From the NCBI RefSeq assembly GCF_001579945.1, contig NZ_CP011971.1, positions 1,576,001 to 1,640,000 on the forward strand: DNA of 64,000 bases, in the 5' to 3' direction. Positions 35,496 through 44,369 of this stretch are shown piece by piece (the stretch's first letter is position 1; each line of letters starts with the position of its first letter). The position numbers were made by a program, and so were the translations under genes. Below the pieces are notes generated by a model, which saw only the letters and a list, made by a program, of their open reading frames with translations, did not search any database and was not told where the DNA came from. This stretch comes from Steroidobacter denitrificans (GTDB taxonomy: Bacteria; Pseudomonadota; Gammaproteobacteria; Steroidobacterales; Steroidobacteraceae).

Positions 35496-36323
35496 TTATG
35501 GCTTAATGTCGGCTTCGAGACTTAAATCCTCGAAGCCCCAGTTCTTGTAACTGGCAGCAGTGGCAACTGACATGCGCGCACTACTCGCCAAGTCCACCAC
35601 TTCGACTTCGACGCCGGGTTTGTCGGACAGAATCTCCTCGATCTTGTCACGGACCGTCTCTAACACTTCGAGCTTGGCGGTATTCGCCGCGGCTTCCGGC
35701 TTGGCCAGCAGGATCACCCGCATACGATAGGTCTCTTCCTCGCCCAACTCCTTCTCAGTGGAAAGTGAATACAGCAGTGCTTCGATATCGCTTTCCACCT
35801 TGCTAAGTGTCTTTCGGATACGCTTGTGGCTATCTGTGCCGATCCTTTGGTCTAGCGCGTTGGGAAACGAGCGTCTTCGTACGCGGGCCGACAGCCAGAA
35901 GGTGTAGTGGTCAAGGTCCTCCTCGGTTATCCAAGCATCGGGATCAGGCCTACGTTCCGCGAGAACTGCGCGTCCGACTACAAATCGCATGGGGGCGCAC
36001 AACTCGTGAAGCACGGCCTGTCCCTCAATATTCACGGCTATTCGGAGCCGTCGCGGGTCGCGTGCGTAACCGAACTGTCCCAGCGTTTCTTGGGTCGGCA
36101 GTGGTGCCGCTGGGCACACTTCTATGTACCGCTCCATGGCGCTCGGGCTCACTACGTCGCAGCTATGGCTGGCAATTACAAGCCGAGTTCCAGCCGGTAG
36201 CTCGTGTCCCTCGGGCAAAGGATGCCAATGCGCAGATGCGATCAGTTCCGCTGAATCAGCAAGGGAAAAAATACTCCCTTGGAGCCATCCGAACTCATGG
36301 ATTTGTTTATGATCGATCGCCAT
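35496..36323 (-). CDS. Unknown protein with SHSCD motif, third gene of TIGR04255-associated cassette
   Basis: 275 residues, not assigned to a characterised family. The N-terminal part has LQGSIFSLADSAELI and LVIASHSCDVVSP; Ser-x-Ser-Cys-Asp after two strands resembles a conserved motif in uncharacterised proteins that often sit near defence genes (recollection, not verified). The middle region is Arg-rich (RRSFPNALDQRI) and a helical segment (IRKTLSKVESDIEALLYSL) precedes a C-terminal alpha/beta part. It starts 12 bp after the HTH gene stop and is the last gene of a reverse-strand operon. Confidence 0.6.
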   Translation of the reverse strand: MAIDHKQIHEFGWLQGSIFSLADSAELIASAHWHPLPEGHELPAGTRLVIASHSCDVVSPSAMERYIEVCPAAPLPTQETLGQFGYARDPRRLRIAVNIEGQAVLHELCAPMRFVVGRAVLAERRPDPDAWITEEDLDHYTFWLSARVRRRSFPNALDQRIGTDSHKRIRKTLSKVESDIEALLYSLSTEKELGEEETYRMRVILLAKPEAAANTAKLEVLETVRDKIEEILSDKPGVEVEVVDLASSARMSVATAASYKNWGFEDLSLEADIKP

Positions 36324-36335
36324 TCTGCAGCGAGA

Positions 36336-37052
36336 TCACTCTTTGTCGGCATAGCTCGGTGCATATTTGTCCCGACGACGACGACGCTGCTCTAAAGCGT
36401 CTTCGGCAGGAAATCCGTCAATGCCCCTAAGCTCAGTTAATTCCAATGGACCTGCAGTGGCTGCCCGTATGAGCCGTCGAAGTGCTTCCATATCCAAGTG
36501 TTCTGCACTAAGCATCTCTCCGAGAGTTCGGGACATCACATCCCCTGGAGTACGCATGTGCCATGACGCACGTGCCGACCCCAATCCCGCAGACACCCAT
36601 TCTCCTGCAAAGTGCTCAAGTGCCACAATGCGGTCCCGCGCCCGTGAACGTGGCTGCACACCCCGAAACCACTGGTAAAGCGTCGCGCGCTCGACCTGCA
36701 GCGCGGACGCCAATTGAGACTTAGTCAGCTGTAGCTGACTTTCCAAAGTTTCGAGCGATCGGGTTACAAGCGACGCCGATTGATCGTTCTCGCGATGCGG
36801 GTAATCCGGACCCGACCGGAACTGCATGCGCCACTGCTTGAACGGCGTCTCAACATCGGAGGCGTGATATCCCTGCATGACCAAACTCGAGAGGATTGCT
36901 GCCGCAATCACGACGGACATACCCTGATGCGGACCACTGGACGATGAGTTCGCAAACGGATCGAACGCGGACCCGTAGAGCATGCTCTGCTGTCCGCTCC
37001 CAGAGTGGATTCGATCCCATTCCTCGACATGCGCTGCGCTCGGGTGAGCCAT
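36336..37052 (-). CDS. HTH-containing protein, middle gene of TIGR04255-associated cassette
   Basis: 238 residues from the ATG at 37052, preferred over the GTG at 37061 because AAGGAG lies 8 nt before it and the ATG shares its A with the upstream stop (TGATG). An N-terminal segment contains a hydrophobic stretch (GMSVVIAAAILSSLVMQGY). LQLTKSQLASALQVERATLYQWFRG is a clear Xre/Cro-type helix-turn-helix (~115-140). The C-terminal region (FAGEWVSAGLGSARASWHM, LGEMLSAEHLDMEALRRLI) faintly recalls the toxin-binding domain of Xre-type antitoxins, but I cannot confirm this. A regulator or antitoxin of the cassette is the simplest reading. Confidence 0.65.
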   Translation of the reverse strand: MAHPSAAHVEEWDRIHSGSGQQSMLYGSAFDPFANSSSSGPHQGMSVVIAAAILSSLVMQGYHASDVETPFKQWRMQFRSGPDYPHRENDQSASLVTRSLETLESQLQLTKSQLASALQVERATLYQWFRGVQPRSRARDRIVALEHFAGEWVSAGLGSARASWHMRTPGDVMSRTLGEMLSAEHLDMEALRRLIRAATAGPLELTELRGIDGFPAEDALEQRRRRRDKYAPSYADKE

Positions 37053-37828
37053 CACTTCCACTCCTTGACCGCCTTGTCAGAAATCGCGCGCTTGAACGCC
37101 GATGCAATCGGCTTCTTCAGTTCACGAAGGAATTGCTCAAGCTGCTCAATCCGTGGCATTGATTCGGCACCTTCAATGAAATGATCCGTGTCCAAAAAAA
37201 GGCTGCGTTTGTTGGGGTCAGGCATGCGGACGGGCTTGAGTACTAAGGGCAGCAAGTCCGGCGGAAGGGCGGCATCAAGCACACCTTTGGTCGCACGAAA
37301 GAGGATCTGCCCCATCACCGTTGCGCCGCTCACGACGTATTGCGAGATTTTCTCTGTGACACCATCAAGTTCGAAACCCCTTAACTGAGCATCGATATAG
37401 TCTTCCAGAGGAGCATTCCCTTGATCTGCAATCAGGTCAACGTATCTGAGTCCGATTCGATGCATGCGGGAGATGCCCGCAATCTCGGCGACCGTCGAGA
37501 ATCCTTTGACTATTTCAGGAACGAATTCCTCAAAGTCTGTGTACGCGGTCGTATGGTATGTCAGCGACGCGTTGTAGAGGATATACCCGCTACGAGCATC
37601 CGCCCGTTCGAACCGCCAGCGAGTCTCGTTCCTCAAGGCTATAGCCTTGCTTCTCGGCTGCATCGCTACGTCGGCGATCTGCTCCTCCTCAAATTCTTCG
37701 TACTGTGATCGGAGCCGTTCCTGAATGTCGGGAACGTATTGGGCCATTTTCAGGACCGGCGCGAACCGGATTTGGCACAGCGCATATACTAGGGGGGCAT
37801 GCGAGAGACGCCCCGTAAAATCAGCCAC
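37052..37828 (-). CDS. TIGR04255-family-like protein, first gene of a three-gene cassette
   Basis: 258 residues. The start region (LSHAPLVYALCQIRFAPVLKMAQYVPDIQERLR), the mid segment (HTTAYTDFEEFVPEIVKGFSTVAEIAGISRMHRIGLRYVDLI, split positions ~95-140) and the end (LRELKKPIASAFKRAISDKA) match the sporadically distributed TIGR04255 family as I remember it; no biochemical function is known to me. The start is GTG at 37828 with GGGAG 8 nt upstream. It heads a reverse-strand operon with no gaps, inside an island rich in integrase fragments and toxin-antitoxin genes. Confidence 0.7.
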   Translation of the reverse strand: MADFTGRLSHAPLVYALCQIRFAPVLKMAQYVPDIQERLRSQYEEFEEEQIADVAMQPRSKAIALRNETRWRFERADARSGYILYNASLTYHTTAYTDFEEFVPEIVKGFSTVAEIAGISRMHRIGLRYVDLIADQGNAPLEDYIDAQLRGFELDGVTEKISQYVVSGATVMGQILFRATKGVLDAALPPDLLPLVLKPVRMPDPNKRSLFLDTDHFIEGAESMPRIEQLEQFLRELKKPIASAFKRAISDKAVKEWK

Positions 37829-38025
37829 TTGCGGTACTCCCTAGATCGGAACCTACTCTATGGACATGCGCCCGGAGCGAAAGTTTACACAAAACAATAC
37901 ACTCTGTCCCCTGAAGTAGGGATCGCGCGTGACGAAGTTGGCCCTGGGTGGGCGTCGTGTTCCCCGCGGTCCGCAACCCTGGTTAGCCTCCCTCGAGGGG
38001 CCTTGCTAGCTCATTAAATTGACGA
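37829..38025. promoter_or_regulatory. Upstream region of the three-gene cassette
   Basis: About 200 bp of relatively AT-rich sequence between the excisionase-like gene and the cassette, with several A/T runs at 37880-37905 (reverse strand TTGTTTTGTGTAAAC). It probably contains the cassette promoter, but no pair of -35 and -10 boxes is convincing. Confidence 0.35.
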
Positions 38026-38253
38026 TCATTCCGAGATGGACTGGAGATAACGACGGATTGTAGATCTACGCCATCGATGTGCAGAGCCCAGCCGGCCTCG
38101 CACGTCCGGCGGCGGAAAGCGCCCGCGCGCGATCAGCTCTGATATCCATCGGCGAGTGTAACCGGTCGCGCGCTCTACGTCGCGCGTCTCTATCAGTCCA
38201 TCCAATTCTTCGGCGATCTGCTCCGGGGTCGGTCGGCGGGAATGCGATGGCAT
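38026..38253 (-). CDS. AlpA-like excisionase/DNA-binding protein
   Basis: 75 residues from the ATG at 38253 (the GTG at 38298 would add 15). LIETRDVERATGYTRRWISELIARGRFPPPDVRG and HRWRRSTIRRYLQS form the winged-helix DNA-binding unit of AlpA-type regulators, which activate or direct excision of P4-like elements. It lies 110 bp downstream of an integrase C-terminal fragment in the same orientation, the usual pairing in such islands. Confidence 0.75.
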   Translation of the reverse strand: MPSHSRRPTPEQIAEELDGLIETRDVERATGYTRRWISELIARGRFPPPDVRGRLGSAHRWRRSTIRRYLQSISE

Positions 38254-38363
38254 GTCTACTGCACCACTATCTAGGGTGCGCAGACTGTGCCGGTCCACAT
38301 CGGCTAAGCGCGAGCATCAATGGGGACAAGCGATCAGCCGCATTGCTGATGCCGCCGAGATCG

Positions 38364-38717
38364 TCATGATCCGCGTGCTTTCGCGATCGGGACGACCTTG
38401 CTTAGCTTGCCATCAATGATCGAGCGCAATTCCGTTTCCCATATGGCGAGAGCGCGTTGTTTCTCGTTCCAATAGCTGTGGCGATCGTAGACCGCCGTGA
38501 TGTCGCCGCTGTCGCTGTGGTTCAAAATTTTGCCGACGTGTAGGCGCTCGATGCCGAGCGCGGTCATTTGCGTGGCGGCCGTCCGGCGCAGGTCATGCGG
38601 CGTGAACGGCTCACAGCCGAACAGCTGGGGATGCTTTTCGCCAACGCGATTGTTTCTCAACGCTCGCGACAGCGCTCGCTCGCTTATCGGTGCGTCGGGC
38701 TTAAGCATTGAATGCAC
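38364..38717 (-). pseudogene. P4-type tyrosine integrase, C-terminal fragment
   Basis: 117 codons. PFTPHDLRRTAATQMTALGI holds the catalytic H-x-x-R, ILNHSDSGDITAVYDRHSY holds the second histidine region and tyrosine, and NEKQRALAIWETELRSII is the usual tail. Roughly the first 280 residues of a P4-type integrase are missing; an in-frame stop lies a short way upstream. It is a different integrase from the fragment at 34202-34630. Confidence 0.8.
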
Positions 38718-38786
38718 TGATGGCTGCGCATGAGGCTGGCCAGCCGTGGCAGAGTGTTAAAGGCATCAGAAGCCGTGCCCGCTTCT

Positions 38787-38883
38787 TGCGCGTCCTAGCG
38801 CGTGCCAGGTGGCGTCTGGCGCGCTAGGCAGCCGTGCCAGTTGGCACACCTTCAAGCCCCGGCGCCCTTGGCCGGGGTTTTTT
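38787..38883 (+). repeat. Repeat B, copy 1, ending in a rho-independent terminator
   Basis: The segment TGCGCGTCCTAGCGCG (38787-38802) through a CCCCGGC/GCCGGGG hairpin (38857-38863 with 38871-38877) and six T residues is about 70% identical to 39681-39775. The two copies bracket the HigBA-like module. The terminator points rightward and also lies just beyond the antitoxin stop. Confidence 0.7.
38857..38883 (+). terminator. Rho-independent terminator in repeat B copy 1
   Basis: 7-bp GC stem with a 7-nt loop followed by TTTTTT. There is no obvious complete gene just upstream on this strand, so the transcript it ends, if any, may be a small RNA or the read-through of the integrase remnant region. 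Confidence 0.75.
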
Positions 38884-38911
38884 GTTTGACGCCCGGGGTG
38901 CAGCCATGCGC

Positions 38912-39226
38912 TCACGCCGCTTTCGACACGCTCAGCCGCATGCCGAGAGCCTTCATCACCTTGACCACGGTTGCAAGCGTGGGATTGCCGCCCGCGCCGA
39001 GCGCCTTGTAGAGCCCTTCGCGCGTAAGGCCGGTGTCGTTGGCGAGCTTGATCATGCCGTACGCGCGAGCCACGTTGCCGAGTGCCGCAGAAATGAGCGC
39101 TGGATCGTCCGCGGCGTCCTCCATGACAGCGTCCAGGTACGCAGCAATATCATCTTCGCTCTTGAGGTAGTCGGCAGTGTCGTAGCGGGAGAAGGTCTCC
39201 TTTGCAGTCTTTCGCTTGGTAGCCAT
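38912..39226 (-). CDS. HigA-like antitoxin (addiction module antidote)
   Basis: 104 residues. YDTADYLKSEDDIAAYLDAVMED, then LISAALGNVARAYGMIKLANDTGLTREGLYKALGAGGNPTLATVVKVMKALG, the Xre-type helix-turn-helix of the TIGR02684 antidote family. It neutralises the toxin encoded 3 bp upstream and probably represses the shared promoter. Toxin-first gene order is normal for this family. Confidence 0.88.
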   Translation of the reverse strand: MATKRKTAKETFSRYDTADYLKSEDDIAAYLDAVMEDAADDPALISAALGNVARAYGMIKLANDTGLTREGLYKALGAGGNPTLATVVKVMKALGMRLSVSKAA

Positions 39227-39229
39227 GGT

Positions 39230-39526
39230 TTAACCCTTCCACTGTTTGGCGATTTTGATCGCCTGCTTGATGTCTTTGTCCTGCGTGCGCTTGTCGCCGC
39301 CGCACAAGATCACGGCAATCACCCGGCCGCGCTGTGTGTAGTACACCCGGTAGCCGGGGCCGTAGTCGATCCGCAACTCACTCACGCCCGAGCCCACTGG
39401 CTTCACATCACCGGGATTGCCCAACGCGAGACGATCCAGCCGAAGCTGAATGCGCGCCCGCGCCGCGAGGTCTCCCAGGCCTGAAAGCCAGGCATCGAAA
39501 GTGGCGGTTTTGATCAGCTCGACCAT
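39230..39526 (-). CDS. HigB/RelE-like toxin (addiction module killer)
   Basis: 98 residues from the ATG at 39526: VELIKTATFDAWLSGLGD, ARARIQLRLDRLALGNPGDVKPVG, LRIDYGPGYRVYYTQRG, VILCGGDKRTQDKDIKQAI. This is the TIGR02683-type RelE-fold mRNA-interferase family. An ATG at 39544 is in frame, but it would overlap the -10 box of the promoter at 39533-39561, so the second ATG is preferred. Confidence 0.9.
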   Translation of the reverse strand: MVELIKTATFDAWLSGLGDLAARARIQLRLDRLALGNPGDVKPVGSGVSELRIDYGPGYRVYYTQRGRVIAVILCGGDKRTQDKDIKQAIKIAKQWKG

Positions 39527-39532
39527 GAGCGA

Positions 39533-39561
39533 ACTGTAAACCATAGTTCACATTGTGTCAA
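39533..39561 (-). promoter_or_regulatory. Consensus sigma-70 promoter of the HigBA-like module
   Basis: On the reverse strand TTGACA (39561-39556), 17-bp spacer, TACAGT (39538-39533). The expected start of transcription is 39526, the A of the toxin ATG, so the message would be leaderless. Repeated GTGAACTA half-sites around the -35 and spacer could be the antitoxin operator. Confidence 0.75.
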
Positions 39562-39680
39562 CTGTAGTTCACCTGGGTGGGCTAAGCTGCAGGAGACGCT
39601 GCTGTCTCGCATAAACATGGGCCGCGAGAAAAAATCGGAACCGCCCCCTCAAGTAAGGTATCCGAACCGTACTCGGTTCC

Positions 39681-39779
39681 TGCGCGTCCTAGCGCGCGCG
39701 AGGTGGCGACTGGCGCACCAGTAACCCGCGTGGATGCAACCCTTACAGCCTCGGTGCCCGCGGCCGGGGTTTTTCTTTT
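39681..39779 (+). repeat. Repeat B, copy 2, ending in a rho-independent terminator
   Basis: TGCGCGTCCTAGCGCG at 39681-39696 leads to a CCTCGG/CCGGGG stem (39749-39754 with 39764-39769) and a T-rich tail. It aligns along its length with 38787-38883. It lies between the two divergently arranged toxin-antitoxin modules. Confidence 0.7.
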
Positions 39780-39820
39780 CGGAGGCGCGGTTCACCTGCG
39801 CTTCCCCAATCCCACAAACT

Positions 39821-39855
39821 GCGGCATTGACGCATATGCGGCATTGACGCATACT
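39821..39855 (+). promoter_or_regulatory. Promoter built from a tandem 17-bp repeat
   Basis: A 17-bp unit, GCGGCATTGACGCATAT, occurs twice (39821-39837 and 39838-39854, last base changed). The first copy supplies TTGACG (39827-39832) and the second supplies CATACT (39850-39855) at exactly 17 bp. The expected start of transcription, 39862, is 2 nt before the toxin ATG at 39864. Confidence 0.65.
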
Positions 39856-39863
39856 GCGCTCAC

Positions 39864-40187
39864 ATGTACACCGTCATCGAAACTCCGACCTTTACGCGGC
39901 TTTGGCCGGACTACTGGGATGAGGACGAACGCGGTGAATTCGTGGCGTGGCTGGTCGAGAACTCCGAAGCCGGAGATGTGATCAAGGATTCCGGCGGCTG
40001 CCGCAAGGTGCGCTGGAAACGTTCAGGCATGGGCAAGCGTGGCGGTGTTCGTGTCATCCACTACAACCGCTTGGCAGATGGCGTGATCTATCTGCTGCTG
40101 ATCTACGCGAAGAGTGTTCGTGATGACATCAACGCAAAGACGCTCGACAAAGTTCGGAGGACGATCGATGGCAAAAAAGATGAGTGA
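39864..40187 (+). CDS. RelE-like toxin of second toxin-antitoxin module
   Basis: 107 residues: MYTVIETPTFTRLWPDYWDEDERGEFVAWLVEN, DVIKDSGGCRKVRWKRSGMGKRGGVRVIHYN and IYLLLIYAKSVRDDI, the layout of RelE/HigB toxins paired with NadS-like antitoxins. No ribosome-binding site precedes the ATG, in keeping with a near-leaderless message. The 3' end overlaps the antitoxin gene by 20 bp. Confidence 0.88.
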   Translation: MYTVIETPTFTRLWPDYWDEDERGEFVAWLVENSEAGDVIKDSGGCRKVRWKRSGMGKRGGVRVIHYNRLADGVIYLLLIYAKSVRDDINAKTLDKVRRTIDGKKDE

Positions 40188-40485
40188 ACGCGCGCTACGG
40201 GCGCGCGATGCAAAACGCGATATTGGCGCCGAACTACTCGCCTCGGTACGCGAGATGAAGGCCGGCCAGGCCGGGCATGTTCACCGTGTACCGGTATCGG
40301 CGATCGCAGAGGCGCGTGCGCGTTCCGGATTGTCGCGGCAGAAGTTTGCGGACCTGCTCGGCGTGTCTGCGCGCACGATGCAGGAATGGGAACAAGGCCG
40401 GCGTCAGCCTTCTGGGGCGGCGCGCTCACTGCTTGCTATTGCTGCTCGTCGGCCAGAGGTATTTCGCGAAGTGTTCAACGATTGA
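40168..40485 (+). CDS. NadS-like HTH antitoxin of second module
   Basis: 105 residues from the ATG at 40168, which has GGAGG 8 nt upstream. After a basic leader, ARARSGLSRQKFADLLGVSARTMQEWEQGRRQPSGAARSLLAIA is a Xre-type helix-turn-helix with the C-terminal tail of NadS-type antitoxins. It likely binds the toxin and represses the repeat-containing promoter upstream. Confidence 0.88.
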   Translation: MAKKMSERALRARDAKRDIGAELLASVREMKAGQAGHVHRVPVSAIAEARARSGLSRQKFADLLGVSARTMQEWEQGRRQPSGAARSLLAIAARRPEVFREVFND

Positions 40486-40554
40486 ACCACGGGGTTGGCC
40501 TCACACGCGCCTCATGTAAGGTAGCGGCTGACGAAATCGTCATCGTCATCAACG

Positions 40555-41061
40555 TCATCGATGCGGTGCTGAACCTTCGTTTCGTCTACCGGCGTCGTGC
40601 CGAGCTTGCTCAAGAGCGAACTCAAAGCCTGCGAGCCGCGAATAGATGATCCACTCGCCAGCGCGGGTGAGGACCTTGCGCGAGCCATGATGGAAGTCTA
40701 GATGTAGCAGTTGCAAGACGTACCGGACCTCGTAGCTTCTGATCTCGCGTTCAACGAGGATCTCGGCGCCGGCGCAGATCTCGTCGTTGCCACGACGAGG
40801 TGCGCGCTTGCGAGTCAGGCCATGGGCCTTCAGATACCGCCGCACGCTCGCATAGGAGGGACATGGCACGGGTGGATCGGCGACGGCGAGGACGATGCGC
40901 AGGTTGTCATGCAGGAGCTGTACGTTCCACAAAGGATGCTCAGCGTACTGCGCCCGCAGGGCTTCGCCCGCCGCCGGCGGGGCCGCCAACAACACACCGA
41001 TAATTTTAAAGCGTAATCGCGCCCAGAGATCTCGCTCACGTAGATCGTTCTTGCCCCTCAC
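40555..41061 (-). pseudogene. DDE-type transposase remnant (IS481-like)
   Basis: The frame begins DLRERDLWARLRFKIIGVLLAAPP, jumps to LRAQYAEHPLWNVQLLHDNL, and continues with PSYASVRRYLKAHGLTRKR and SYEVRYVLQLLHLDFHHGSRKVLT. Full-length relatives have about 60 further residues between the first two pieces and a complete DDE catalytic domain after the last, so this copy has an internal deletion and a lost 3' half. I recall this pattern from IS481-like integrase-catalytic proteins. Confidence 0.7.
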
Positions 41062-41099
41062 TGCTTGCCTCCCACACCGACAACATCGCCAGTATCACG

Positions 41100-41230
41100 A
41101 TGGCGCGACAGGCTATGCACCCTCTTTCGCTGGAGGAAGCCGGCGACGATCCAGCATACATCGCCGCTGTCCTTGGCGACATTGCCAAGAACAGCGGCAT
41201 TCTGAAATTGGCAGAGGACACCGGCATGAC
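41100..41230 (+). pseudogene. Antitoxin fragment cut by direct repeat A
   Basis: LSLEEAGDDPAYIAAVLGDIAKNSGILKLAEDTGMT matches the first helices and start of the helix-turn-helix of HigA-type antidotes like the one at 38912-39226. The match ends exactly where repeat A begins (41231), and its N terminus is replaced by sequence next to the transposase remnant. No toxin gene accompanies it. Confidence 0.65.
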
Positions 41231-41530
41231 AGGCGCTCAGCGGAGCCTGCTGCCTCGTCTGAGGCTTCCGCCGTGCCTTCTGTTGAAAGCTCGGGCGGAG
41301 GTTTTGCATGGATGGAAAATGATGCGGATTTGCTTCGATAGGTTGTCTCCTGTGGTGAAGTGGGTGCAGGACGGGCACCGATCTTGGCATGGCGGCCGGG
41401 ATCGGTGGCCAGAGTGACGACGCACGATGATGTGCTTGCTGAATGCTTGACGAAAATGGCTCAGCCTTCAGGGGGAGGGTGACGCGCAAGTGAGCCTGTC
41501 GCATTTAGGTGGGGCGGCCGATTGGGTACG
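41231..41530 (+). repeat. Direct repeat A, copy 2 (about 300 bp)
   Basis: Same orientation as 34733-35032, 6.5 kb away. Its left edge falls inside an antitoxin gene directly after the codons for GMT, as expected if the repeat, or something ending in it, was inserted there. Confidence 0.8.
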
Positions 41531-41562
41531 CGATCGAGACCGATAGCGACATGCCGGTCAGA

Positions 41563-41592
41563 TTACGCAACATTATCATATTATGATATATT
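41563..41592 (+). promoter_or_regulatory. parDE promoter and palindromic operator
   Basis: A perfect 15-bp palindrome, TATCATA-T-TATGATA (41574-41588), overlaps the spacer and -10 of a promoter with TTACGC (41563-41568) and TATATT (41587-41592), spacing 18. A ParD dimer site for autorepression is the natural interpretation. Confidence 0.6.
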
Positions 41593-41615
41593 AAGATACT
41601 CATCAGCTTTCAACG

Positions 41616-41888
41616 GTGACTACCGTGCCATCAAGTTACACCCTCGGTGAACACTTCGAGCAGTTCGTAAGGAGGCAGGTCGATGGAGGCCGCTACGTCA
41701 GCGCAAGCGAAGTCTTGCGGGATGCTCTGCGTCTGCTGGAGCAGGAGCAGCAGCGGCGACAGGCATCTCTCGACGCCCTGCGCGGTGAAATCGACAAAGG
41801 CCGACAGAGTGGGAAACCCCGGCCTGCTACTGACATTCTCGACCGTCTTGAGCGCAAATACGCCAAAGCCGCCCAAGAGCCGAAATAG
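41616..41888 (+). CDS. parD: ParD-like antitoxin
   Basis: 90 residues. SYTLGEHFEQFVRRQVDGGRYVSASEVLRDALRLLEQEQ is the ribbon-helix-helix DNA-binding unit typical of ParD/CC2985-type antitoxins, followed by a charged, flexible toxin-binding tail. The start is GTG at 41616 (GTG 41625 also possible). ParE follows 3 bp downstream. Confidence 0.9.
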   Translation: MTTVPSSYTLGEHFEQFVRRQVDGGRYVSASEVLRDALRLLEQEQQRRQASLDALRGEIDKGRQSGKPRPATDILDRLERKYAKAAQEPK

Positions 41889-41891
41889 CAA

Positions 41892-42182
41892 GTGCGCGCC
41901 TATTTCACGCCACTGGCCGAAGCCGACCTTGAAGAGATCGGCGACTACATCGTGCTCGACAATCCGCGACGTGCAGTCTCTTTCATCCGCGAAATCCGCG
42001 AACACTGCGAGAAGATCGCAGACGGGCCGCTCCACTACGTAGCTCGCCCCCAACTCGGCGCGAAGCTGCGCAGCTGTGCGCACGGCAACTACGTCATTTT
42101 CTTTGAGCCCTTCGAGGACGGCGCCCTGATCCTGCGGATTCTGCAAGGCGCCAGAAATCTCCCTGATATTTTTGCTCTATGA
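41892..42182 (+). CDS. parE: ParE-like toxin
   Basis: 96 residues: YFTPLAEADLEEIGDYIVLDNPRRAVSFIREI, then GAKLRSCAHGNYVIFFEP and ILRILQGARNLPDI. This is the ParE branch of the RelE superfamily, whose characterised members poison DNA gyrase. GTG start directly after parD. Confidence 0.92.
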   Translation: MRAYFTPLAEADLEEIGDYIVLDNPRRAVSFIREIREHCEKIADGPLHYVARPQLGAKLRSCAHGNYVIFFEPFEDGALILRILQGARNLPDIFAL

Positions 42183-42871
42183 GTCGCGGGCGCTCAGCCT
42201 TCGCACGTCAAGAACATACACATGTACGAAGACCCGGACTGATATGGCCTGACGTGTCAACTGGCACAACGCCCTCTTTCTCGCGTTCTATACCACGATG
42301 TTGGATCTAACCTAGCAAACAAGCGCAGTAGCAACGCGACGCGCAGGCAGTCATGGCGAGGATGGATCATGCTGATATCCGCGGATTGGTTACTGCATTT
42401 CATCTGTCCATCGCGGGGCTGCCTACACTCTAGTGTCGGGAATCATCGCGATGGATACCAAATCCAAAAAGCCCATCAGCTCGCTTGGATGAGCAAAGCG
42501 GTGGAAGTCCCCGACCTCGGCGCTGCAAAGCCAATCATCTGGAACCCAGCATGAGCCGCCGAGGAAACTGCTGGGATAACGCGGTGGCGGAATCATTCTT
42601 CAGCAGTTCTTCAGTCGGCGAATGTCGCATGTGCCTTTATTGCGCGGCTATATTCCGTGCCTTGTCGAGACCGCCAGAGTGCCGACGTCGTACTCCCGGT
42701 ATGCATGTCATGGCCGATCTGAAAACCGTGTAGATAAGCTGGTTTGAAGATCGAGTCTCCTTCATCCGTTTTTTCGGATGAACTTTATACAAATCATCCG
42801 CGGACGCCAGAAGTACTGTAGCAAGCCCCTGAGTGTCGCAGCACCGGCGGAGCTGCGTATGCCGGTGAGAA
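42183..42871. other. Right end of the accessory island, mostly gene-free
   Basis: 690 bp without an intact gene. It contains one insertion-sequence scrap (separate entry) and a CATCCG/CGGATG hairpin with a six-T loop (42763-42780). Composition shifts toward AT in the last 150 bp before the polysaccharide locus. No copy of the tRNA-Pro 3' end is seen. Confidence 0.5.
42545..42610 (+). pseudogene. IS3-family transposase scrap
   Basis: The frame reads SMSRRGNCWDNAVAESFFSS, the well-known segment near the end of the IS3-family OrfB catalytic domain (it includes the last acidic residue of the DDE triad). Sequence before and after is unrelated. Only about 20 codons survive. Confidence 0.8.
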
Positions 42872-43960
42872 TCATAGAAACCGTGTCCGGTGAATTTCGG
42901 TATCTCCATACCGTTCGCCACGCAGGCGCAGCAGCGCGCCCTTGCATGCTTCGGGGTTTCGTAATGCGATGCACGTTGCCGTAGAGCACGTGAGCAATAG
43001 GGCGAGGGAGATCAGGTCGTCAACCTTGAAGAGTTCGATCAAAAACCCGCATCCTGCGAACAGTACGGTAATACCCAGAAGGACCGCGCAGGTCGCGCGG
43101 CCGGAGAGGCCGGCGCGTTGCAACCTATGATGGAAGTGATCCGCATCCGCCGATAGCGGGGACCGTCCGTCTGCGAGACGGCGCGCGAAACTGACGATGA
43201 GTTCCATGATGGGCACCGCGGTCATCCAAAGTATGGTCGTGGGTTGTGCAAGCATCACTGGGCCCTGACTGATACGCATGCCGAACCACGCAACCCATAG
43301 CCCGATCATCGTGCTGCCGGCATCTCCCATGAAGCATCGAAACCGGCGGTTGAACGAAAATGGAGCATTGAACGCGAGAAAGGCCGCTAGTGGGGCCGCA
43401 GCGATCGCAATTGCAATAATCAACTCTTGGGGGCCGGCTGCAAGGCAGGATAGCACCAGAAAAAACACCAAGGACAGCAGGCCGAGTCCGGCGGCGAGCC
43501 CATCGAGGCCATCGACGAGATTGTAGGCATTGATGGCGGCCATCGCGGCCAGCAGGGTAAATGCCGGCGCCCATGCGTCAAGGCCGATGAAGGATCCATC
43601 TTCCCAGCTGAGAATCCGCTCGATGACTACCCCACCGGAGCCTATCAGGATCGCAGCTGCGGCCAGATGAACCGCAAGACGCAACCATGGGTGCACTTCG
43701 AAGCGATCGTCGGTTATCCCGACAGCAAACAGCATACTCATGCTCAGCAGAGCCGGTAGCGAGGCCTGAGTCTGATAGGGCGCCAACAATACGCCCACTG
43801 CATAACCGCCGAACATACCGATTCCACCGATCACAGCGACTTCACCTTCATGCCGCTTACGTCCACCGGGGCGGTCTATGAAGCCGAGCACCGGTGCAAT
43901 CGGGAGCAGGATCAGGATGAGTACAACCGTGCTGATAAAGACGATAGCTGCGTGCAGCAT
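42872..43960 (-). CDS. WecA/MraY-family polyprenyl-phosphate sugar-1-phosphate transferase
   Basis: 362 residues with about ten membrane helices. GITDDRFEVHPWLRL is the first catalytic aspartate-pair region, INAYNLVDGLDGLAAGLG the second conserved motif, CFMGDAGSTMIGLWVAW and ADADHFHHRLQRAGLS the HxxHH-type loop. It would load GlcNAc-1-P or a related sugar-1-P on undecaprenyl phosphate to begin repeat-unit assembly. It is divergent from the phosphatase and sugar-modifying genes, at the left edge of the polysaccharide locus. Confidence 0.88.
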   Translation of the reverse strand: MLHAAIVFISTVVLILILLPIAPVLGFIDRPGGRKRHEGEVAVIGGIGMFGGYAVGVLLAPYQTQASLPALLSMSMLFAVGITDDRFEVHPWLRLAVHLAAAAILIGSGGVVIERILSWEDGSFIGLDAWAPAFTLLAAMAAINAYNLVDGLDGLAAGLGLLSLVFFLVLSCLAAGPQELIIAIAIAAAPLAAFLAFNAPFSFNRRFRCFMGDAGSTMIGLWVAWFGMRISQGPVMLAQPTTILWMTAVPIMELIVSFARRLADGRSPLSADADHFHHRLQRAGLSGRATCAVLLGITVLFAGCGFLIELFKVDDLISLALLLTCSTATCIALRNPEACKGALLRLRGERYGDTEIHRTRFL

Positions 43961-44369
43961 GCAGAACTGTGGCTCTTTGCTGTGTGCGGCGGCGAATTAC
44001 CGCTGTGCATCCGCCAATCCGTTGGGTTGATGAGACACGCATAGCCTAAACAAGCGCAGAGGTCCGCACCGGGTAGAACAGTTCGAGATGGAATGACTTT
44101 TCTGGAAGCGAAGGTTGCCACAAGCATTCCCATGCCTACCCGCAGGGAGACGTGCGGTACCGCCTCGATTCCGGGCAGGGCTCAGAAAGAACCAATTTGA
44201 ATCAGACTTGTGCCGCGTCAGTCGGTATCGTCAATACACTTGCGAGGCAATACGGATATGGCATTGCGATCGCGTGCAGTGCGACTTCTCGCGCTGGATT
44301 TCACAGCCTTCGTCATATGAGCACACATGCGCTTGTGCAGATCGAACGTATCGGTTCGAGCTAACTGTA
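43961..44369. promoter_or_regulatory. Divergent intergenic region of the polysaccharide locus
   Basis: 410 bp, less GC-rich than the genes, between the divergent WecA-like and phosphatase genes. It probably holds both promoters, but I found no convincing consensus boxes and no gene. Confidence 0.4.

What the first reader, a model, noticed from the sequence alone, without database searches (positions are those of the whole stretch)
39526..39561. HigB-like toxin gene with a consensus promoter that predicts a leaderless mRNA
On the reverse strand TTGACA and TACAGT are spaced by exactly 17 bp, and the projected transcription start (39526) is the A of the ATG that gives the best toxin start. The in-frame ATG 18 bp upstream would lie in the promoter. 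Leaderless toxin messages would be translated by 70S ribosomes and could respond differently to stress than the following antitoxin.
Basis: partly seen in the sequence, partly recalled or inferred. Interest (0 to 1): 0.55.

Follow-up and report, generated by a model that had tools for sequence, protein, structure and literature searches.

The report
Leaderless toxin mRNA in toxin-first operons
A bacterial toxin gene sits so close to its promoter that its message should begin at the start codon itself, and the same layout recurs in several families in which the toxin gene comes before its antidote, which may help such pairs make less toxin than antidote.

Summary
The genes are an HI1419/HI1420-type (TIGR02683/TIGR02684) toxin-first module. 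The layout is family-wide: in 110 of 127 usable loci the best sigma-70-like -10 ends 4-8 nt before the toxin start, in 66 exactly 6. Codon-position bias begins at this ATG, so 39544 is not a conserved start. These toxins show background Shine-Dalgarno signal (12 of 110); 95 of 109 of their antitoxins have one. Four other toxin-first families show the layout in about half of the loci (HigB PF05015 16/30, BrnT 16/30, HicA 12/27, HigB PF09907 13/27); antitoxin-first ones do not (ParD 0/29, RelB 0/29, Phd 1/30). Best reading: a leaderless toxin cistron with a Shine-Dalgarno-led antitoxin, biasing output toward antitoxin. No RNA end was mapped; 70S initiation, dosage and stress response are inference. 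In the listings and passages I saw, leaderless TA regulators and a general TA link are described, this rule is not.

The parts
39230..39526 (-). toxin CDS, RelE/ParE superfamily, TIGR02683 (HI1419 type), 98 aa, ATG at 39526
   Evidence: coding bias starts here in the family; predicted fold with pLDDT 89.9, nearest PDB chain HigB1
38912..39226 (-). antitoxin CDS, TIGR02684 / PF21716 (HI1420 type), 104 aa
39556..39561 (-). -35 hexamer TTGACA
39533..39538 (-). -10 hexamer TACAGT, 6 nt before the ATG
   Evidence: spacing conserved in the family
39526..39526 (-). predicted +1, coinciding with the A of the start codon; preceded by C
   Evidence: inference; pyrimidine before the start codon in 90 of 110 leaderless-like loci
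39535..39552 (-). operator-like palindrome TGTGAAC-TATG-GTTTACA overlapping the -10
   Evidence: 6 of 7 pairs, same geometry as most of the family; other registers nearby also reach 6 of 7; function inferred
39556..39573 (-). weaker palindrome GGTGAAC-TACA-GTTGACA containing the -35, 21 bp from the first; tentative
   Evidence: only 5 of 7 pairs; function inferred
39234..39240 (-). Shine-Dalgarno GGAAGGG of the antitoxin, inside the end of the toxin gene
   Evidence: duplex -6.0 kcal/mol against -2.2 before the toxin
39542..39544 (-). alternative in-frame ATG in the promoter spacer, judged not used
39864..40187 (+). divergent toxin-first module (RelE PF06296), also with a promoter close to the start: TTGACG-17-CATACT, 8 nt, ATG

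Best explanation
The operon is read from one sigma-70-type promoter whose +1 is the A of the toxin start codon, so the toxin is the leaderless first cistron of a two-gene message, and the antitoxin is started internally from a Shine-Dalgarno site. This offsets the promoter-proximal position of the toxin and should favour antitoxin. The antitoxin, of an HTH-type family, probably represses by covering palindromes that overlap the promoter. The layout is conserved in the HI1419 family and common in other toxin-first families. Shown by sequence: promoter, spacing, start codon, Shine-Dalgarno asymmetry, palindromes, conservation. Inferred: the 5' end, 70S initiation, ratio setting, repression.
For: 110 of 127 HI1419-family loci have the best -10 at 4-8 nt from the start, 66 at exactly 6; a gap of 3-10 nt was seen in 112 of 127 against a mean of 7.9 of 127 in 20 rounds of shuffling. 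100 of 117 upstream-sequence clusters agree. The base before the start is C or T in 90 of 110. Pairing to the anti-Shine-Dalgarno of -4.5 kcal/mol or better: 12 of 110 toxins (16% in shuffles), 95 of 109 antitoxins (34% in shuffles); antitoxin stronger in 103 of 109. Third-position share of mismatches 0.58 in codons 2-6, 0.33 in codons -6 to -1 (442 pairs). Toxin-first families together 167 of 241, antitoxin-first 1 of 88. Ordinary ORFs of 200 aa or more in the 80 scanned loci: 14 of 179. Palindrome with at least 6 of 7 pairs in 92 of 110 (15% in shuffles), overlapping the -10 in 76. In a plasmid search the DNA match to relatives begins exactly at the ATG in 10 and at the first base of the -10 in 5 of the 20 listed of 74 records. 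Published: leaderless transcripts of Methylosinus sporium were mainly of stress regulators and toxin-antitoxin systems (PMC12403871, passage).
Against: No 5' end was mapped. 17 of 127 family loci do not fit, and half of the loci in the other toxin-first families do not (57 of 114 fit). HicA is weak when only TAnnnT is asked for (6 of 27). E. coli K-12 higB, mqsR and hicA do not fit (best -10 at 31, 24 and 18 nt). Leaderless messages are not poorly translated everywhere: in Caulobacter they are as efficient as others (PMC4117421, passages), so ratio setting may depend on the host. 20 of the 110 starts are GTG. The low structure of the first 40 nt (median -6.0 against -10.4 kcal/mol further inside) is also usual for ordinary starts.
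Confidence: 0.72

Rival explanations
1. Antitoxin-only message: the promoter makes a transcript whose first cistron is hardly translated, as for the autoregulated promoter of E. coli hicAB, and toxin is made from a longer transcript that starts further upstream.
For: A review states that the autoregulated hicAB promoter yields a transcript truncated at the hicA ribosome-binding site, supporting HicB only, and that another promoter upstream serves both genes (PMC7167474, passage). My scoring places that -10 18 nt before hicA, which fits.
Against: A longer transcript would expose no Shine-Dalgarno: 98 of 110 leaderless-like toxins are weaker than -4.5 kcal/mol. In the window no candidate clear of this promoter exceeds 2.3 bits within 150 nt; further upstream was not examined.
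Confidence: 0.17
2. Packing by-product: operators must overlap the promoter and the cassettes are compact, so the start codon happens to abut the -10; leaderlessness has no role in dosage.
For: Palindromes overlap the -10 in 76 of the 92 loci that have one; leaderless translation is efficient in Caulobacter (passages).
Against: Antitoxin-first modules, which are also autoregulated, have the layout in 1 of 88 and a Shine-Dalgarno in 78 of 88.
Confidence: 0.2
3. Translation starts at the in-frame ATG 39544 on a longer message.
For: The ATG is in frame (104-aa ORF).
Against: No codon-position bias upstream of 39526 and a mismatch rate of 0.59 there against 0.26 in codons 2-6; it lies in the promoter spacer; 13 of 110 leaderless-like loci of the family have an in-frame stop within 12 nt upstream of the start.
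Confidence: 0.02

Closest known systems
HI1419/HI1420-type toxin-antitoxin module (TIGR02683/TIGR02684)
   Same: Both proteins score far above the curated cut-offs and the toxin gene is first
   Different: A leaderless layout is what this report adds; of the four papers that the search for the family names found I saw the listing of three and passages of one (PMC4226512), which say nothing of its promoter
Lambda cI and PaaR2 (paaR2-paaA2-parE2) leaderless repressors
   Same: Promoter abutting the start codon; PaaR2 shown leaderless by 5' RACE and likened to cI (PMC8630535, passages)
   Different: There the leaderless product is the repressor; here it is the toxin, and the presumed repressor is the Shine-Dalgarno-led second gene
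E. coli hicAB autoregulated promoter
   Same: Toxin-first; the message lacks the full translation signal of the toxin (PMC7167474, passage)
   Different: hicA has a ribosome-binding site that a second promoter serves; the HI1419 family mostly has no Shine-Dalgarno to lose
E. coli mqsRA and rnlAB extra antitoxin promoters
   Same: Same problem: antitoxin must exceed toxin in a toxin-first operon (PMC6918082 and PMC7167474, passages)
   Different: Solved by transcription from within the toxin gene, not by the kind of translation start

Membership tests
HI1419/HI1420 TA module | toxin above the TIGR02683 cut-off | tested here: met
   133.3 bits against 62.85
HI1419/HI1420 TA module | antitoxin above the TIGR02684 cut-off, directly downstream | tested here: met
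   114.2 bits against 53.7; starts 3 nt after the toxin stop
HI1419/HI1420 TA module | toxicity and neutralisation | not testable with these tools
   no experiment
HigB (PF05015 / PF09907) | match to either Pfam HigB model | tested here: not met
   only PF05973 Gp49 at E <= 0.001; fold nearest HigB1
Leaderless mRNA gene | -10 about 6 nt before the start codon and no Shine-Dalgarno | tested here: met
   for the window; for the family
Leaderless mRNA gene | mapped 5' end at the start codon | not testable with these tools
   no RNA data for this genome were at hand
hicAB-type antitoxin-only transcript | toxin has a Shine-Dalgarno that the short transcript loses | tested here: not met
   -2.2 kcal/mol before the window toxin, equal to the shuffled median of the family

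The most novel reading that the evidence does not exclude
A leaderless first cistron is a general, repeatedly evolved solution of toxin-first type II operons: it lowers toxin relative to antitoxin in growing cells, and because leaderless starts depend differently on initiation factors and 30S subunits, conditions that impair Shine-Dalgarno initiation would tip synthesis from antitoxin to toxin, making the operon a sensor of the state of the translation machinery.
Probability: 0.3. Interest if true: 0.8.

Novelty: new variant of a known kind. Interest (0 to 1): 0.6.

Why it matters
How toxin-first operons are expressed so that antitoxin exceeds toxin is posed as a question in the literature and answered case by case with extra promoters (passages). 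A conserved leaderless toxin start would be a simple answer for many loci, can be read from sequence, and can be checked against existing 5'-end maps. By the same scoring the E. coli K-12 examples higB, mqsR and hicA do not have it, which may explain why work on that model did not show it.

Tried and rejected
The flanking direct repeats (38773-38887, 39667-39779) were followed as possible cassette ends or a small RNA: no Rfam match at gathering thresholds in 36000-44000, no match in plasmids for one copy or in phages for the other, and in 190 family genomes, besides the window genome, only short pieces (31 nt at 94%, a terminator stem by eye, and 39 nt at 88%). I could not say what they are. 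Single-sequence search found no solved relative of the toxin at E <= 0.001; a profile reached only HigB1, weakly (E 0.003). The antitoxin had no PDB match at E <= 0.1. Thirteen papers were looked into, by passages for search terms only; none was read whole.

Choices that changed or were not blind: I read genome-search loci as if strand-oriented, and redid it with reverse complements. The start rules were set before promoter scoring but after I had looked at upstream sequences by eye. One search counted gaps of 3-10 nt; the class 4-8 nt was chosen after seeing its histogram (HI1419 112 became 110; HigB, BrnT, HicA and ParD did not change). In one search the start rule for PF09907 could not reach the real start; after looking at the sequences I moved it (6 of 22 became 13 of 27). 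Rows dropped: of 139 HI1419-family loci 10 had no start codon near the family start, 1 too little upstream DNA, 1 was a duplicate; HicA lost 3 and ParD 1, RelB 1, PF09907 3. The 127 include the window locus itself. The -10/-35 base frequencies were recalled, not taken from a call. Only three antitoxin-first families served as controls.

Full report
What is there. On the minus strand the window reads TTGACA (39561-39556), a 17-bp spacer, TACAGT (39538-39533), six bases, and ATG at 39526. The gene encodes a 98-aa protein of TIGR02683 (upstrm_HI1419), followed after its stop by the TIGR02684/PF21716 antitoxin at 39226-38912. The toxin model (mean pLDDT 89.9) is nearest in fold to HigB1 of M. tuberculosis and to HigB2. 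Its first strand is residues 3-6, so the protein from 39526 has its complete fold. The genome is a single contig of 3.47 Mb and holds one more TIGR02683 copy at C1:777011-777296, split between two frames.

Is the start right? In 442 pairs of family members with 65-97% DNA identity over codons 2-40, mismatches in codons 2-6 fall at codon positions 1/2/3 with shares 0.30/0.12/0.58 (mismatch rate 0.26), while codons -6 to -1 show 0.32/0.35/0.33 (rate 0.59). Coding therefore begins at 39526. The ATG at 39544 lies between -35 and -10. In a search of plasmids with 1,301 bases around the module, the match begins at the ATG in 10, and at the first base of the -10 in 5, of the 20 records listed out of 74.

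Is the spacing more than chance? Of these 139 loci 127 were usable. The toxin start was set from the protein alignment; then the best sigma-70-like promoter in the 150 nt upstream was found. The -10 ends 4-8 nt before the start in 110 of 127 and exactly 6 nt in 66. A gap of 3-10 nt was seen in 112, against a mean of 7.9 in shuffled sequences. Among promoters of 8 bits or more it is 88 of 95. Collapsing similar upstream regions leaves 117 clusters, of which 100 have a median gap of 4-8 nt. The base before the start is C or T in 90 of 110. Long ordinary ORFs in the 80 scanned loci give 14 of 179, and none of the nine with a promoter of 8 bits or more.

Translation signals. Before the 110 leaderless-like toxins, pairing to the anti-Shine-Dalgarno of -4.5 kcal/mol or better occurs in 12, which is background (16% in shuffles). 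Their antitoxins have it in 95 of 109 (34% in shuffles), and the antitoxin signal is the stronger in 103 of 109 and the weaker in 6. In the window the values are -2.2 and -6.0; the antitoxin site GGAAGGG (39240-39234) lies in the end of the toxin gene.

A wider pattern. The same procedure on other toxin-first families gave 16 of 30 for HigB PF05015, 16 of 30 for BrnT and 12 of 27 for HicA, and 13 of 27 for HigB PF09907 (start rule moved after a first count of 6 of 22). Antitoxin-first families gave ParD 0 of 29, RelB 0 of 29 and Phd/YefM 1 of 30. Together 167 of 241 against 1 of 88; without the HI1419 family 57 of 114. A plain TAnnnT at that place, without any -35, gives HI1419 104/127, HigB 17/30, BrnT 17/30, PF09907 16/27, HicA only 6/27, against ParD 0/29, RelB 1/29, Phd 1/30. 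Shine-Dalgarno signals follow: 18 of 167 leaderless-like toxin-first genes, 33 of 74 other toxin-first genes, 78 of 88 antitoxin-first genes. Promoter position and Shine-Dalgarno thus change together. The divergent neighbour in the window, a RelE/HTH toxin-first pair at 39864, has its -10 8 nt from the start.

Operators. A palindrome with 7-bp arms, at least 6 paired, occurs in the last 50 nt in 92 of 110 leaderless-like family loci (15% in shuffles), overlaps the -10 in 76, and in 58 ends exactly 2 nt short of the 3' end of the -10. In the window TGTGAAC-TATG-GTTTACA (39552-39535, 6 of 7 pairs) has that place; other registers at 39563-39545 and 39549-39531 also reach 6 of 7, and a copy over the -35 (39573-39556), 21 bp away, reaches only 5 of 7. 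That the antitoxin binds them is inferred.

Mechanism. The message should start at the toxin's AUG. Leaderless starts are read without a Shine-Dalgarno, while the antitoxin is read from a good one. This would offset the promoter-proximal position of the toxin. Literature, seen as passages found by search terms unless said otherwise: a review notes that reverse-order systems use extra antitoxin promoters, that toxins appear to be translated less efficiently than antitoxins, and that the autoregulated hicAB promoter of E. coli yields a message truncated at the hicA ribosome-binding site (PMC7167474); mqsRA uses promoters inside mqsR (PMC6918082); PaaR2, the regulator of a TA operon, is leaderless by 5' RACE, like lambda cI (PMC8630535); leaderless transcripts of Methylosinus sporium were mainly of stress regulators and TA systems, without saying which gene of the pair (PMC12403871); in Burkholderia cenocepacia leaderless genes were enriched in regulators and have the promoter motif directly upstream in place of a Shine-Dalgarno (PMC4603805). 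Against simple weakness of leaderless starts, Caulobacter translates them as well as others (PMC4117421).

Why it may have been missed. In E. coli K-12 the best -10 lies 31, 24 and 18 nt before higB, mqsR and hicA; for hicA that leaves a leader of about 11 nt. In the listings of ten searches of an open-licence library, and in the passages I opened, I saw no statement that toxins of toxin-first modules are leaderless. Most listed papers were not opened, subscription papers are not held and supplements were closed, so the pattern may stand in tables.

Limits. I had no RNA data for this genome; the loci are the best-scoring ones and are related; start codons in the comparison families were called by rule; promoter frequencies were recalled from E. 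coli and applied to many phyla. What I hold firm is the contrast between toxin-first and antitoxin-first genes in promoter position and in Shine-Dalgarno signals, and for the window the exact geometry.

Noticed in passing
window 38773-38887 and 39667-39779 (+): Two direct repeats (62 nt at 81% and 44 nt at 77% in register), about 893 bp apart, flank the module; both end in a terminator-like hairpin with a T run on the plus strand. Only these two copies in the genome at E <= 0.001; unexplained.
   Followed up: partly
window 39820-39853: A perfect 17-bp tandem repeat (TGCGGCATTGACGCATA twice) lies in the promoter of the divergent RelE/HTH module; possibly its operators.
   Followed up: no
window 38364-42182: Cluster of three TA modules (HI1419-type, RelE/HTH, ParDE) next to a tyrosine-recombinase C-terminal fragment (38364-38717, -), suggesting a mobile or remnant island.
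   Followed up: no
window 41100-41417 (+): ORF whose first part resembles an HI1420-type antitoxin by eye and then diverges; possibly a decayed module.
   Followed up: no
L002, G000:C1:777011-777296 (-): Second TIGR02683 copy in the same genome, split between two frames (probable frameshift), with a palindrome-rich upstream region.
   Followed up: partly
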